In this document: one piece after another, positions 36,543 to 40,733 of the stretch
How positions within the stretch are numbered: position 1 is the stretch's first letter
Layout: the number at the start of each line of letters is the position of its first letter
Translations under genes and position numbers: made by a program
Notes under the pieces: generated by a model
The model's input: only the letters and a program-made list of their open reading frames with translations
Told to the model about the DNA's origin: nothing
Databases searched by the model: none
NCBI GenBank assembly: GCA_902768985.1
Contig: CACXNA010000004.1
Span: forward strand, 56,424-120,423
Length of the DNA: 64,000 bases
Direction of reading: 5' to 3'
From: an uncultured Bacteroidia bacterium
GTDB taxonomy: Bacteria > Bacteroidota > Bacteroidia > Bacteroidales > UBA932

Positions 36543-37127
36543 TTGCCCAAGCTGTATATCATATCAGGCTGCAACGGATCCGGCAAGACAACAGCGTCCT
36601 ACACGCTCTTGCCGGATCTGTTGAATTGCCGGGAGTTCGTGAACTCGGACGAGTTCGCCAAGAGTTTCTCGCCTTTCGACCCGGGTGCGGCGTCCGTGAC
36701 GGCCAGCCGCTACATGTTGATGAAGATCAACTATCTGCTGGAGCGGAAGGCGGACTTCGCGATCGAGACGACGCTCGCGACCCGCTCGCTGTTGCAGATC
36801 GTGCGGCAGGCGCAGCAGCAGAACTACGAGACGACGGTCCTGTATTTCTGGCTGAATTCGCCGGAGCTCGCCATCGAGCGGGTGCGGGACCGCGTGGAGT
36901 CCGGCGGCCACCACATCCCCGACGCCGTGATCCGGCGCCGCTATGTGATGGGCCTGCAGTATCTCTTCGACGTGTACATCCCGGTCATCGACCGCTGGAT
37001 CCTGGCGGACAATTCCAAGCCGCCTTTCTCGGTCGTGGCCGAGGGGTCGAAGGATGTGATCTACATCAAGGACAACGAGAAGTATCAACTTATTCAGCGT
37101 ATTGCGCATCCCAATGAATCCGTGTGA
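36543..37127 (+). CDS. Zeta-toxin-like P-loop ATPase/kinase
   Basis: This 194-residue P-loop protein opens PKLYIISGCNGSGKTTASYTLLPDLL (Walker A GCNGSGKT). It then has FVNSDEFAKSFSPFDP, where the Asp follows the zeta-toxin pattern N-x-D-x-I/F, and DFAIETTLATRSLL, VLYFWLNSPELAIERVRDRVESGGHHIPDAVIRRRY (an R-rich lid with G-G-H-x-I-P). It belongs to the 'predicted ABC-type ATPase'/zeta-like group, which has kinase folds but is often unlinked to toxin-antitoxin function. The start is a TTG three bases after the pepD stop; no ATG occurs for about 170 bases. No epsilon-like antitoxin is nearby. It overlaps tldD by 14 bases. Confidence 0.8.
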   Translation: MPKLYIISGCNGSGKTTASYTLLPDLLNCREFVNSDEFAKSFSPFDPGAASVTASRYMLMKINYLLERKADFAIETTLATRSLLQIVRQAQQQNYETTVLYFWLNSPELAIERVRDRVESGGHHIPDAVIRRRYVMGLQYLFDVYIPVIDRWILADNSKPPFSVVAEGSKDVIYIKDNEKYQLIQRIAHPNESV

Positions 37128-38625
37128 CCGTTTTGGCGTGAGCGAAGAGCAGCTTCGCGCGCTCGTGGCCGAGGGGCTGCGGGCGGGCGGCGACTGGTGT
37201 GACCTTTATTTCGAGGACACGTCCTACCACGACCTGCTCCTCCGCGACGGGGTCGTCGGCTCCGGCGGCTACCACGTCGACTACGGCTGCGGCATCCGCG
37301 TCCTGAAGGGCGAAAAAACCGGCTACGCCTACGCCGAATCTACAGATTATCAATCCCTGCGAAGCGCCGCCATCGCTGCTGGCAGTATTGCAGCAACCGT
37401 TGCTCCGTTCCGCGGCGGCCAGCCCCGTCAGACGTCCGGCTGCGCCGGACCCTTCCCACAGACTACGTCTGCGGGCCCCTCCCTCTTACGAAGCCGAGGG
37501 TGGCTACGGTCTGCCGAGGCTGCCGCCGTCTCCACTCCGCCGGTTGCTGCCTACTATAATGAACTGCTACCGTGGGAGGATGCGGAGGTGGCGGGATTTA
37601 TTCCGTTTCTGAAGCGGATCGAGGCGGGGATCCGGGCGCGGGACAGCCGCGTCCTGAAGGTCGTCGCCATCCTGTCGTACTCCGTCAGCGACATCCTGAT
37701 GTACAACTCCCTCGGCGAGCTGACCACGGACCACCGCCCTTTGGGCAGCATATCTGTCCAGGTCATCTTCCAGCAAGGCAAGCGCACGGAAAACAACACC
37801 GTCTCGCGCAGCCTGCGCATGGGCGCCGAATTCGTCAGCGACGCCGTGCTCGAAGACCTCGTCAGCCGCACCGTCGAAGGCATGGACGCCCGCTTCGAGG
37901 CGCGCCGGCCCAAGGGCGGGCAGATGCCCGTCGTGATGGGCGCCGGCGCCTCCGGCATCCTGCTCCACGAGGCCATGGGCCACGCCTTCGAGGCCGACTT
38001 CAACCGCAAGGGGCAGTCCATCTTCAGCGACCGCATGGGCCAGCGCATCTGCCGTCCCGGCATCAACATCCTGGACGACGCCACAGTGCCCGCCAGCCGC
38101 GGCGCCTGCAACTACGACGACGAGGGCGTGCCCGGCCAGAAAACCTACATGGTCACGGACGGCGTCCTGACCTCCTATCTCCACGACCGCATCAGCGCGG
38201 GCTTCTACGGCGTGGCCCCGACGGGCAACGGCCGGCGGGAGTCGTTCCGCTACAACCCCATTCCGCGCATGCGGACGACCTACATGGAGAGCGGCCCCGA
38301 CGGGACGCGGGAGGACCTGATCGCTTCCGTAAAACGGGGAATTTACGTAGACCAGTTCGCGAACGGACAGGTCAAGATCGGCGAAGGGGATTTCACCTTC
38401 TTCGTCAAAAGCGGCTTCCTCATCGAGGGCGGCCGGCTGACGATGCCCGTCAAGGACATCAACATCATCGGCAACGGGCCGCAGGCCCTGGCCGACATCC
38501 AGGCGGTCGCGGGCGACCTGCGGATCGACGAGGGCACCTGGACCTGCGGGAAGGAGCAGAGCGTCGCCGTGTCCTGCGGCATTCCTTCCGTATTGATTGG
38601 AAATTTAACGGTCGGAGGAGAGTAA
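37114..38625 (+). CDS. tldD: TldD metalloprotease homologue with in-frame repeat insertion
   Basis: This 503-residue protein is the catalytic half of the TldD/TldE (PmbA) protease, which trims unfolded peptides and processes some microcin and PQQ-type precursors. The zinc motif is LLHEAMGHAFEADF (His285-Glu-x3-His). The end LTMPVKDINIIGNGPQALADIQAV is typical. It carries an insertion at about residues 101-128, encoded by a repeat (37416-37497) shared with the partner gene, in a loop before NELLPWEDAEVAGFIPFLKRIE. The reading frame stays open, so it may still be functional. The start ATG at 37114 is chosen over an upstream TTG. Confidence 0.85.
   Translation: MNPCDRFGVSEEQLRALVAEGLRAGGDWCDLYFEDTSYHDLLLRDGVVGSGGYHVDYGCGIRVLKGEKTGYAYAESTDYQSLRSAAIAAGSIAATVAPFRGGQPRQTSGCAGPFPQTTSAGPSLLRSRGWLRSAEAAAVSTPPVAAYYNELLPWEDAEVAGFIPFLKRIEAGIRARDSRVLKVVAILSYSVSDILMYNSLGELTTDHRPLGSISVQVIFQQGKRTENNTVSRSLRMGAEFVSDAVLEDLVSRTVEGMDARFEARRPKGGQMPVVMGAGASGILLHEAMGHAFEADFNRKGQSIFSDRMGQRICRPGINILDDATVPASRGACNYDDEGVPGQKTYMVTDGVLTSYLHDRISAGFYGVAPTGNGRRESFRYNPIPRMRTTYMESGPDGTREDLIASVKRGIYVDQFANGQVKIGEGDFTFFVKSGFLIEGGRLTMPVKDINIIGNGPQALADIQAVAGDLRIDEGTWTCGKEQSVAVSCGIPSVLIGNLTVGGE
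37416..37497 (+). repeat. 82-bp in-frame element inside tldD
   Basis: The arms are conserved with the copy in pmbA (39062-39143). A shared GTCCGGC-TGC-GCCGGAC hairpin is followed by a 15-bp variable core (here a CAGAC-TAC-GTCTG hairpin), then GGGCCCCTCCCTCTTACG. Both copies have equal length and the same reading frame, giving the peptide QTSGCAGP...GPSLLRSR. Confidence 0.85.
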
Positions 38626-38626
38626 G

Positions 38627-40150
38627 ATGATTACAGATAAGGAGTTGGACTTCGTCCGGAAAGCACTTGACATGGCCGCGCGCGCCGGCGCCCAGCACGC
38701 CCGCGCGACGCTGTCGCTCAGCGAGGAGGACCTCGTGGCGACGCTCGACGGCGAGGTCGACCGCGTGACGCATTGCGCCGACCGTTCGCTGTCGCTGGCC
38801 CTCTTCGTCGACGGCCGCTTCGGCAGCTATTCGACCAACAAACTCGACGCGGCCTCGCTCGAGGGCTTCATCGCCCGCGCCGTGGCCGCCACCCGCATGG
38901 TCGCGCCGGACCCGCTCCGCGTCCTCCCCGACCCTGCCCGCTGCTGCCACGACGCCCTCACCGGCAACGAACTCGGCCTCGTCGACCCCGCCCGCGAAAA
39001 GGTCTCTCCGGCAGACCGACAGAACATCGCCCTATCCGCCTCTGTTTTGGCTTCGCTCCACGGCAGCCAGCCTCTCCAGACGTCCGGCTGCGCCGGACCC
39101 CTCCCCTTGCTAGCGCAAACGGGCCCCTCCCTCTTACGGAGCCGGCTCGAAGAGAAAATGTCCCCTTGCAGGGGACTACAGGGGTTAGAGAACAAGCCAG
39201 CTTGCTGGCTACGTTCTGGAGGGGCTGCTGCCGATTCCGCTGCGCCAACAGAGGCGAAGTATCAGATTATTTCTGAAGAAGGAGAATATAGCGATAGTAT
39301 CTACGAGACGGTGGTGATGGACACGAACGGGGTGTGCTGCAGACACAGTGAGACTTCGTTTGATTATGGCGTGGAGATTACGATTGAGAGCGAGGGCGAG
39401 AAATACAGCGGCTACTGGTGGGACGCCTCCTCGCGCCTCGCGGAACTGGACGCCCCGGCGTGCGGCCGCCAGGCCCTCGCGCGCGCCGTCGGCCAGATCG
39501 GCTCCGCGCCCGTCGCCGGCGGCCGCTACACCGCCGTCATCGACGCGGAGATGGCCTCCAAGGTCGTCTCCCCGATCCTCCGCGCCCTGAGCGGCTACGC
39601 CATCCAGCAGAACAACTCCTTCCTGATGGACAGCCTCGGGCGGCAGGTATTCCCCGAAGGGCTCAGCATCCTGGACGTTCCCCGCATCCCCGGGCAGACC
39701 TGCTCCAAATACTTTGACTCCGAAGGCGTTGCGACCGTCGAGGCCCCCGTCGTCGAGGCCGGCGTCGTGAAGCAATACTTCATCAACAGCTACATGGCCG
39801 GGAAGCTCCAGATGGCCCCGACAGTCGAAGACGCCACCCGCCCCAAGGTCCTCCCCTGGCCCTGCGCCGGCCTGGACCGCGACGCAATCCTGCGTCGCTG
39901 CGGCAGCGGCATCCTGGTCACCGACTTCAACGGCGGCAACAGCAACCCCGTGACCGGAGACTTCTCCTACGGCATCGAAGGCTACTGGTTTGAGGACGGC
40001 AAGATCGTCCGCCCTGTGAGCGGCATGCTGATGACCGGCAACTTCCTCACGCTGTGGTCGCGCCTGCTCGCCGCCGGCGACGACGCGCGCCCCTGCCAGA
40101 CCAAGCTTGTCCCGACCCTCGCCTTCGCGGAAGTAGATTTTAGCGGATGA
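38627..40150 (+). CDS. pmbA: PmbA/TldE homologue with in-frame repeat insertion
   Basis: This 507-residue partner of TldD lacks the HExxxH metal site, as expected for TldE. Visible family parts: DGEVDRVTHCADRSLSLALFVDGRFGSYSTN, the central DTNGVCCRHSETSFDYGVEI, and the C-terminal GLSILDVPRIPGQTCSKYFDSEGVATVEAPVVEAGVVKQYFINSYMAGKLQ and GILVTDFNGGNSNPVTGDFSYGIEGYW. It is about 60 residues longer than usual. The extra is a repeat-encoded block (about residues 146-200) holding the element shared with tldD plus further small palindromes. It starts one base after the tldD stop, so the pair is an operon. Confidence 0.85.
   Translation: MITDKELDFVRKALDMAARAGAQHARATLSLSEEDLVATLDGEVDRVTHCADRSLSLALFVDGRFGSYSTNKLDAASLEGFIARAVAATRMVAPDPLRVLPDPARCCHDALTGNELGLVDPAREKVSPADRQNIALSASVLASLHGSQPLQTSGCAGPLPLLAQTGPSLLRSRLEEKMSPCRGLQGLENKPACWLRSGGAAADSAAPTEAKYQIISEEGEYSDSIYETVVMDTNGVCCRHSETSFDYGVEITIESEGEKYSGYWWDASSRLAELDAPACGRQALARAVGQIGSAPVAGGRYTAVIDAEMASKVVSPILRALSGYAIQQNNSFLMDSLGRQVFPEGLSILDVPRIPGQTCSKYFDSEGVATVEAPVVEAGVVKQYFINSYMAGKLQMAPTVEDATRPKVLPWPCAGLDRDAILRRCGSGILVTDFNGGNSNPVTGDFSYGIEGYWFEDGKIVRPVSGMLMTGNFLTLWSRLLAAGDDARPCQTKLVPTLAFAEVDFSG
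39062..39143 (+). repeat. 82-bp in-frame element inside pmbA
   Basis: Same arms as the tldD copy, including the GTCCGGC-TGC-GCCGGAC hairpin, but the 15-bp core is replaced by a different hairpin (TTGC-TAGC-GCAA). It is followed to about 39226 by more palindromic modules: CCCCT-TGC-AGGGG at 39162-39174 and AGCCAGCTTGCTGGCT at 39195-39210, all kept in frame. Confidence 0.85.
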
Positions 40151-40335: not shown

Positions 40336-40377
40336 ATGACAAATGTTGTTTTACATAAGTTTATGACTTATAAATAA
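40336..40377 (+). CDS. Putative leader mini-ORF 1 (13 codons)
   Basis: ATG to TAA encodes MTNVVLHKFMTYK. It occupies the same place in its repeat unit as the two better conserved mini-ORFs but shares little peptide sequence. Translation is not shown. Confidence 0.25.
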   Translation: MTNVVLHKFMTYK

Positions 40378-40458
40378 TTACGAAAATAACCAGGTACTTT
40401 TGGCACCGGTTAGTTTCAGAAAAGATTGATTAATAATGAATTATGAAAAACAGCAGAG

Positions 40459-40503
40459 ATGAACAGCAGGGGCGGGATGGTAATGTTTTATGTAAATTAT
40501 TAA
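40459..40503 (+). CDS. Putative leader mini-ORF 2 (14 codons)
   Basis: It encodes MNSRGGMVMFYVNY and ends in TAA. The ATG lies in the context CAGCAGAGATGAA, which is repeated as CAGAGAGATGAA at slyD itself. The peptide differs from the next copy by one residue. Confidence 0.35.
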   Translation: MNSRGGMVMFYVNY

Positions 40504-40596
40504 CTGATAAAGATTTTACAAAAGTAACTGGGAATCTGAGAAGCCAGTTAGTTTCATAAATAATTGACTAATAATAGATTATGGAAAACAGCAGAG

Positions 40597-40641
40597 ATGA
40601 ACAGCAGGGACGGGATGGTAATGTTTTATGTAAATTATTGA
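40597..40641 (+). CDS. Putative leader mini-ORF 3 (14 codons)
   Basis: It encodes MNSRDGMVMFYVNY and ends in TGA. Between this and the previous copy only one codon (Gly to Asp) and the stop (TAA to TGA) differ. Such recent duplicates cannot show selection by themselves. Confidence 0.35.
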   Translation: MNSRDGMVMFYVNY

Positions 40642-40733
40642 CTGATAAAGATTTACAAAAGTAACTGGGAACTTGAGAGCCTGGTTAGGATTTATAAAAT
40701 ATTGAATATAAATAAATTATAAATAACAGAGAG

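What the first reader, a model, noticed from the sequence alone, without database searches (positions are those of the whole stretch)
37416..39143. Same 82-bp element inserted in frame in both partners of the TldD/PmbA protease
tldD (37416-37497) and pmbA (39062-39143) each contain an element of identical length and reading frame. The outer sequence is nearly the same (about 30 bases around the GTCCGGC-TGC-GCCGGAC hairpin, then GGGCCCCTCCCTCTTACG), and both encode QTSGCAGP...GPSLLRSR. The proteins are longer than their families by about the size of the inserts, and neither frame is broken. In-frame selfish palindromes inside proteins are known from Rickettsia (RPE); an element present in both genes of one complex would be a new case, possibly spread by gene conversion.
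Basis: partly seen in the sequence, partly recalled or inferred. Interest (0 to 1): 0.75.

Follow-up and report, generated by a model that had tools for sequence, protein, structure and literature searches.

The report
In-frame palindromic repeats in Bacteroidales genes
The two matching inserts in this bacterium's tldD and pmbA genes are two copies of a scattered, hairpin-folding DNA element that sits inside many protein genes of gut Bacteroidales without breaking them, something known in detail mainly from Rickettsia.

Summary
Each "82-bp" stretch is the inner part of a roughly 145-bp (tldD) or 202-bp (pmbA) element: a bulged outer stem enclosing three or more hairpins. The model finds 12 copies in the genome, all open in the frame of their host ORF (tldD, pmbA, trmB twice, polA, dsbD and others). 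The core matches in 310 of 400 genomes searched of the genus and in 11 of 25 genera of the family. Of 81 sampled copies with readable flanks, 72 lie in frame inside one gene, 7 are intergenic, 1 is frame-shifted and 1 joins two genes. Core length is a multiple of 3 in 68 of 72 in-gene copies but 1 of 7 intergenic ones, so in-gene copies are evidently translated. Close relatives carry pmbA without the insert. Outer arms differ between copies yet stay complementary. In some species copies avoid genes (G449 and G105, 0 of 16); in others they sit mostly in genes (G191, 8 of 8). The TldD/PmbA pair is two hits on one permissive linker. It works like Rickettsia palindromic elements. No mobilising enzyme was found. 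New variant of a known kind.

The parts
37399..37433 (+). 5' outer arm of the tldD copy (outer end approximate)
   Evidence: pairs with 37509-37543, with bulges, in the fold; end estimated from near-identical copies at unrelated sites
37434..37508 (+). core of the tldD copy, 75 nt, three hairpins, conserved GGGCCCCTCCCTCTTACG at 37473-37490
   Evidence: RNA model R1, E 8.9e-24; this copy is one of the seven the model was built from
37434..37450 (+). hairpin 1, GTCCGGC-TGC-GCCGGAC
37509..37543 (+). 3' outer arm of the tldD copy (outer end approximate)
37102..38625 (+). tldD, 507 aa, frame open through the element
   Evidence: Pfam PmbA_TldD_1st/2nd/3rd
39047..39081 (+). 5' outer arm of the pmbA copy (outer end approximate)
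39082..39213 (+). core of the pmbA copy, 132 nt, with the longer 3' module (two further hairpins, about 39167-39212)
39214..39248 (+). 3' outer arm of the pmbA copy (outer end approximate)
38627..40150 (+). pmbA, 507 aa, frame open through the element; orthologues without it in G008 and G308, with 7 and 9 residues at the site in G015 and G177

Best explanation
The two stretches are members of a dispersed family of palindromic elements (about 140-200 bp): a long, bulged outer stem whose sequence is particular to each copy or small group of copies, closing over a conserved core with three hairpins. No gene of its own was seen in it, and it spreads as non-autonomous DNA by a mobilising enzyme not identified here (inferred). 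In this lineage it inserts into or persists in protein genes, often in linkers. Copies with no stop and a frame-neutral length survive there, so the gene is translated straight through and the protein gains some 45-70 extra residues, probably unstructured (inferred). The outer arms stay complementary while they change, either because the folded single strand is what is mobilised or by repeated correction of imperfect palindromes (inferred). tldD and pmbA were hit separately at the same permissive inter-domain linker.
For: Multicopy: 9 exact 18-mers against 0 for the reversed control and 12 copies by covariance model in a 2.35-Mb genome. All 12 are open in the host ORF, in several frames and both orientations; Pfam names 10 of the 11 host genes. 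Insertion: pmbA has 3 residues at the site in G008 and G308, 7 in G015, 9 in G177, against 46-112 in ten relatives and 70 in the window. Copies over 90% alike at unrelated sites share the core and some 20-35 nt of each arm and then stop matching. Translation: all 81 copies with flanks were read: 72 in frame inside one gene, 7 intergenic, 1 shifted, 1 joining two genes; core length a multiple of 3 in 68 of 72 versus 1 of 7, p = 5e-6 (by the script's own uncorrected classes 64 of 68 versus 7 of 13, p = 8e-4). Structure: over 12 arm positions 0.91 complementary within an element versus 0.65 when arms are exchanged, highest of 500 shuffles 0.69, n = 86; arm position 13 is T-A in 29, C-G in 25, A-T in 23. 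A second set gives 0.84 vs 0.51 (39 in ORFs) and 0.93 vs 0.48 (29 outside).
Against: No mobilising enzyme: the one Y1-transposase-like match of the genome is weak (E 1e-3, below cut-off) and most of its nearest homologues carry GGGGAAGGTC-type repeats of their own; 1 of 30 Y1 loci examined has a core-like match. No target duplication was shown. One copy (L045) breaks the frame of a TrmH-like gene. One (L043) joins a QueH-like and a XerC-like gene in frame, which may be misassembly at the repeat. Many of the 81 copies are at the same site in different species (about 25 host genes by my reading), so they are not independent. Translation and movement are inferred from sequence; no peptide or fresh insertion was observed. 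The named genomes are mostly metagenome assemblies. The sample was gathered with a pattern or model tuned to this subfamily.
Confidence: 0.85

Rival explanations
1. An ancestral variable linker of TldD and PmbA that happens to look alike, with no mobile element.
For: The TldD linker is variable across the genus.
Against: The same DNA core lies in nine other genes of the genome and in hundreds of genomes; element-free pmbA in close relatives.
Confidence: 0.02
2. The element is removed after transcription (an intron-like or bypassed element) and leaves no trace in the protein.
For: Strong conserved fold; insertion inside conserved genes, twice within the span of one Pfam model (YgiQ-like, HI0933-like).
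Against: In-gene copies are open in frame and mostly frame-neutral in length, intergenic ones are not; an excised element would need neither. Host frames used are of five kinds in both orientations.
Confidence: 0.05
3. Gene conversion or duplication of one element between tldD and pmbA.
For: Shared outer sequences 1648 bp apart; in G080 the tldD copy shares hairpin 2 with the pmbA copies.
Against: In the window the two copies differ in hairpin 2, the 3' module and partly in the arms; the same core occurs in unrelated genes.
Confidence: 0.08
4. A GTAG/CGTC-type REP doublet (REPIN) moved by a RAYT transposase.
For: CGTC precedes hairpin 1; CGTAG precedes hairpin 3 on the minus strand in the 75-nt form; RAYT-like genes are common in the genus (286 of 400 genomes).
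Against: The minus-strand tag is GTG in the 69-nt form. The nearest RAYT-like genes carry other repeats. 1 of 30 Y1 loci has a core-like match. G119 has 12 copies and no Y1 match, at 83% completeness.
Confidence: 0.15
5. Each insertion makes its own outer arms by inverted copying of the host flank (fold-back synthesis), so arms are partly host sequence.
For: Arms differ between most sites; in pmbA of G000 ten native bases (CGCCTCTGTT) recur inverted at the far end.
Against: Over 11 pmbA genes the match of the native 5' flank to its own far end (mean 8.2) barely exceeds that to other species' (7.1, maximum 12.5), and for the 3' flank it is lower (6.5 against 7.1); some copies at different sites share arms.
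Confidence: 0.15

Closest known systems
Rickettsia palindromic elements (RPE)
   Same: Short palindromic repeats of about 150 bp, multicopy, many inserted in frame in unrelated metabolic genes (PMC10969869, passages read).
   Different: Other phylum; three-hairpin core; arms particular to each copy; matches in more than 300 genomes; some lineages of the family intergenic. Sequence relation to RPE was not tested.
Intragenic GTAG/CGTC REPs (Di Nocera 2013, PMC3733652)
   Same: Hairpin repeats, some inside genes, many of those in DNA replication and repair genes; CGTC repeats known from Bacteroidetes (abstract, sections 6, 15, 16 and passages read).
   Different: REPs are 20-40 bp hairpins, mostly intergenic; this element is 140-200 bp and in several species mostly intragenic.
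MITEs
   Same: Non-autonomous, inverted-repeat DNA of 70-300 bp (size from PMC3733652, passage).
   Different: MITE ends match those of a transposon family (recalled); here the arms vary and no parent was found.
Coding palindromes of Nematomorpha mitochondria (PMC6649704)
   Same: Inverted repeats inside protein genes (start of abstract seen in a search listing only).
   Different: Perfect palindromes in mitochondria; no dispersed core family is mentioned in the part seen.

Membership tests
Rickettsia palindromic elements | Multicopy palindromic DNA of about 150 bp | tested here: met
   12 copies, about 140-200 bp
Rickettsia palindromic elements | In-frame insertion in unrelated protein genes | tested here: met
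   12 of 12 in the genome; 72 of 81 in the wider sample
Rickettsia palindromic elements | Sequence homology to RPE families | not tested
   No RPE sequence was fetched; the named hosts are Bacteroidales, not Rickettsia (record titles)
REP / REPIN with RAYT | Hairpin units of 20-40 bp | tested here: not met
   Three hairpins inside one outer stem, about 140 bp or more
REP / REPIN with RAYT | Unpaired GTAG or CGTC tag | tested here: inconclusive
   CGTC is present at hairpin 1 but its GTC is paired; the minus-strand GTAG is lost in the 69-nt form
REP / REPIN with RAYT | Flanks a Y1/RAYT gene | tested here: not met
   1 of 30 Y1 loci has a core-like match (36 matches, 30 with a locus); the nearest RAYT-like genes carry other repeats
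REP / REPIN with RAYT | Mostly extragenic | tested here: inconclusive
   So in G449 and G105 (0 of 16 in ORFs), not in G191, G223, G265 (24 of 28)
MITE | Family-constant terminal inverted repeats (definition recalled) | tested here: not met
   Arms vary between copies while staying complementary
MITE | Target site duplication (definition recalled) | not tested
   No fresh insertion with an exact empty site was examined
Rfam RNA family | Match to a described family | tested here: not met
   No match reached a gathering score in the tldD-pmbA region or in 13 loci of relatives; three sub-threshold matches at E 0.44-2.6, one of them (PreQ1, 21.4 of 39 bits) overlapping an element
Intron or bypass element | Indifferent to host frame | tested here: not met
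   Core length multiple of 3 in 68 of 72 in-gene copies against 1 of 7 intergenic

The most novel reading that the evidence does not exclude
A family-wide class of three-hairpin palindromic mobile elements of Bacteroidales in which whole lineages have changed habitat between intergenic DNA and life in frame inside proteins, with outer arms that are rewritten as matched pairs (by fold-back copying or by selection on the folded strand). If so, one element family gives a natural experiment on how selfish DNA becomes protein.
Probability: 0.35. Interest if true: 0.8.

Novelty: new variant of a known kind. Interest (0 to 1): 0.62.

Why it matters
A 2024 review says RPEs took in-frame insertion to an unusually high frequency and that it is 'conceivable' that a similar mechanism occurred in other prokaryotes (PMC10969869, passages). 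Here it appears in hundreds of related genomes, with filled, empty and decayed versions of the same gene, intergenic sister lineages, and repeated hits on the same linkers. That makes old questions testable: how such DNA moves, why it is tolerated, and whether the added peptides ever gain a role. It also warns annotators and protein modellers that such linker segments are inserted DNA rather than protein design.

Tried and rejected
Rfam search of the region and of 13 relatives' loci: no match at gathering score. RAYT-like transposase as mobiliser: considered because one lies about 4.5 kb from a copy and such genes are common in the genus. Not supported: by eye 9 of the 12 nearest homologues' loci show GGGGAAGGTC/GACCTTCCCC-type repeats, one a GGGCAAGGTC variant, one none, and in one no ORF was found by the script; of the 30 Y1 loci only 3 have those 10-mers and 1 a core-like match, so most Y1 genes there have other repeats or none. 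The G000 protein had no NCBIfam match up to E 1. Phage carriage: one IMG/VR hit, which lacks the hairpin-1 arm. Inverted copying of the host flank: inconclusive. AlphaFold2 model of TldD: mean pLDDT 39.8, too poor for any claim; residues 100-155 came out as coil below 50, but most of the protein was below 50. The first arm-covariation script found 2 elements because of a bad pattern and was replaced. The first frame test with fixed windows mis-scored copies near gene ends; it was replaced plus reading of translations.

Rows dropped: 14 of 125 pattern hits without a GTCC arm (they include at least five Bacteroidales loci as well as Actinobacteria); near-identical arms, 94 to 86; 5 of 86 at contig ends, copies whose ends the pattern missed and duplicate arms, 100 to 68. 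Changes to the classes (68 in-frame, 13 not) after reading all 81: L109 moved to intergenic; L047, L055, L127, L149, L166 and L196 to in-frame; L043 set aside because it joins two genes; L041, L069, L121, L158, L183, L200 kept as intergenic; L045 counted as frame-shifted.
Full report
WHAT WAS CHECKED. The two 82-bp stretches exist as described. The shared motifs lie at 37429-37452/39077-39100 and 37473-37490/39121-39138, far beyond chance, and both frames are open.

WHAT IT IS. Searching the whole genome for GGGCCCCTCCCTCTTACG with up to one mismatch gave 9 places, all exact, and none for the reversed control. A covariance model of the core (R1, built from seven of these) finds 12 copies. In most copies the minimum-energy fold shows one architecture: an outer stem of 20-45 bp with single-base bulges that encloses hairpin 1 (GTCCGGC/GCCGGAC), hairpin 2 (variable) and hairpin 3 (CCTCCCTC...GAGGGTGG); in the longer copies such as pmbA a 3' module adds hairpins and the predicted fold of hairpin 3 changes. 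Near-identical copies at unrelated sites share the core and some 20-35 nt of arm on each side, which puts the element at roughly 140-200 bp. There is no Rfam match at gathering score.

WHERE THE COPIES SIT. All 12 copies of the genome are inside ORFs and open in the host frame: tldD, pmbA, trmB (two), dsbD, an HI0933-like oxidoreductase, a helix-hairpin-helix protein, an RlmI-like methyltransferase, a THUMP-like protein, a YgiQ-like radical-SAM protein, polA and one unknown. dsbD, the THUMP-like gene and polA are read on the strand opposite to the element as drawn. Several sites lie between Pfam domains (TldD, PmbA, PolA, RlmI-like, before DsbD_TM); the YgiQ-like and HI0933-like sites lie within the span of one model. 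TldD and PmbA are hit in the same linker between domain 1 and the central domain.

IS IT AN INSERTION. pmbA of 15 close relatives was compared with that of the window's genome: G008 and G308 have 3 residues at the site, G015 7, G177 9, G251 27 (remains of the arms but no core), and the ten others 46-112, against 70 in the window. A sixteenth, G045, more distant, has 36 residues with no core recognised; G209 and G042 could not be parsed. In tldD many relatives carry a palindrome, of differing subfamily and orientation; G015 looks like a deletion remnant.

IS IT TRANSLATED. From all loci held then, 86 distinct elements were defined and 81 had enough flank. All 81 were read: 72 are in frame within one gene, 7 are intergenic, 1 (L045, a TrmH-like gene) is frame-shifted, and 1 (L043) joins a QueH-like to a XerC-like gene in frame, possibly a misassembly. 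The uncorrected script count was 68 in-frame and 13 not. Core length is a multiple of 3 in 68 of 72 versus 1 of 7, p = 5e-6; with the script's own classes 64 of 68 versus 7 of 13, p = 8e-4. Over the element a mean of 3.65 of 6 frames are open, so open frames alone would be weak evidence; frame-neutral length is the stronger one. Many copies are at orthologous sites (about 25 host genes by my reading), so the p-values are only indicative.

THE ARMS. Within an element the first 12 arm positions are 91% complementary; exchanging arms between elements gives 65% (highest of 500 shuffles 69%). Several positions use three or more pair types. In pmbA the arms of G000, G080 and G108 differ at one pair (T-A, G-C, and an unpaired T/C). 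This is compensation or paired rewriting; the data do not separate selection on a folded strand from palindrome correction, and relatedness of copies was not modelled.

HOST RANGE AND HABITAT. R1 matches 310 of 400 genomes of the genus at E <= 1e-3 (at most 13 candidates scored per genome) and 57 of 199 in a family-wide draw at E <= 1e-4, in 11 of 25 genera including this one. I fetched 100 copies from 16 species and asked whether an ORF of at least 120 codons spans each. G191 8 of 8, G223 8 of 10, G265 8 of 10, G097 14 of 17, G081 6 of 7, G042 4 of 5, G232 5 of 6, G045 1 of 1, G090 1 of 2; against G105 0 of 6, G449 0 of 10, G577 1 of 5, G463 1 of 3, G044 1 of 5, G016 1 of 3, G410 0 of 2. Control windows elsewhere in the same loci fell in such ORFs in 31 of 36 (G105) and 57 of 60 (G449), so those species' copies avoid genes; 0 of 16 versus 88 of 96, p = 8e-14. 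Splitting the species into two groups was done after seeing the result, the species were chosen by me, and some long ORFs in GC-rich loci look spurious; these hits were not all read. In the first group 55 of 66 copies lie in ORFs against 314 of 396 control windows: no avoidance of genes, and no preference for them either. G223 and G265 also hold intergenic copies with a core like that of G105 (L302, L310), so habitat may follow subfamily; this was not tested formally. An earlier batch of 20 loci (18 from other genera, 2 from other species of the genus) points the same way: one, L266 in trmB, was clearly in frame.

HOW IT PROBABLY WORKS. Shown: dispersed copies, presence/absence among relatives, conserved predicted fold, frame neutrality. 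Inferred: movement in trans, translation into the mature protein, tolerance through linkers. The mobiliser is unknown. RAYT-like Y1 genes are frequent, but the nearest ones carry GGGGAAGGTC-type repeats, and 1 of 30 Y1 loci has a core-like match.

AGAINST WHAT IS KNOWN. Rickettsia palindromic elements are the nearest functional parallel: about 150 bp, many in frame in unrelated genes (PMC10969869, passages read). Intragenic REPs, CGTC repeats that correspond to RPE-4 and RPE-6, and CGTC repeats in Bacteroidetes are described in PMC3733652 (abstract, sections 6, 15, 16 and passages read). I saw no report of this family in the listings of five searches of the held library, which lacks most subscription journals. 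That the genus is Cryptobacteroides is a guess from memory, not a tool result.

VERDICT. A real, widespread, in-frame palindromic element family; the TldD/PmbA pair is incidental. New variant of a known kind.

Noticed in passing
window 40377-40688: Imperfect tandem copies of a 137-138-nt AT-rich unit between pmbA and the following gene: two full copies 84% alike, and a 37-nt part seen three times.
   Followed up: no
window 36543-37127: A Zeta_toxin/AAA_33-like kinase ORF overlaps the start of the tldD ORF.
   Followed up: no
L081:1396-2316 and homologues L082-L092: RAYT-like Y1 proteins of about 306 aa, preceded in several loci by another open reading frame that overlaps or abuts it, most near inverted GGGGAAGGTC...GACCTTCCCC repeats; matches in 286 of 400 genomes at E <= 1e-10; no NCBIfam match for the G000 protein.
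   Followed up: partly
L013, L017, L019, L022, L242 (tldD linkers of relatives): Other palindromic inserts occupy the same TldD linker in other species of the genus, some apparently nested.
   Followed up: no
core of the element, minus strand: CCCYTCCC and CCCCTCCC lie on either side of hairpin 2, so the minus strand carries two GGGAGGGG-like runs that might form a G-quadruplex; these bases are invariant or nearly so in the seven aligned cores.
   Followed up: no
atpG-like (L317, L324), murE-like (L293, L303, L304) and ribF-like (L276, L315, L343) genes of G191, G081, G223, G265, G097, G232: The same linker of housekeeping genes carries an element in two or more species (gene names are my reading of the translations).
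   Followed up: no
L043 (G015): A QueH-like and a XerC-like gene are joined in frame through one element; misassembly at the repeat or a real fusion.
   Followed up: partly
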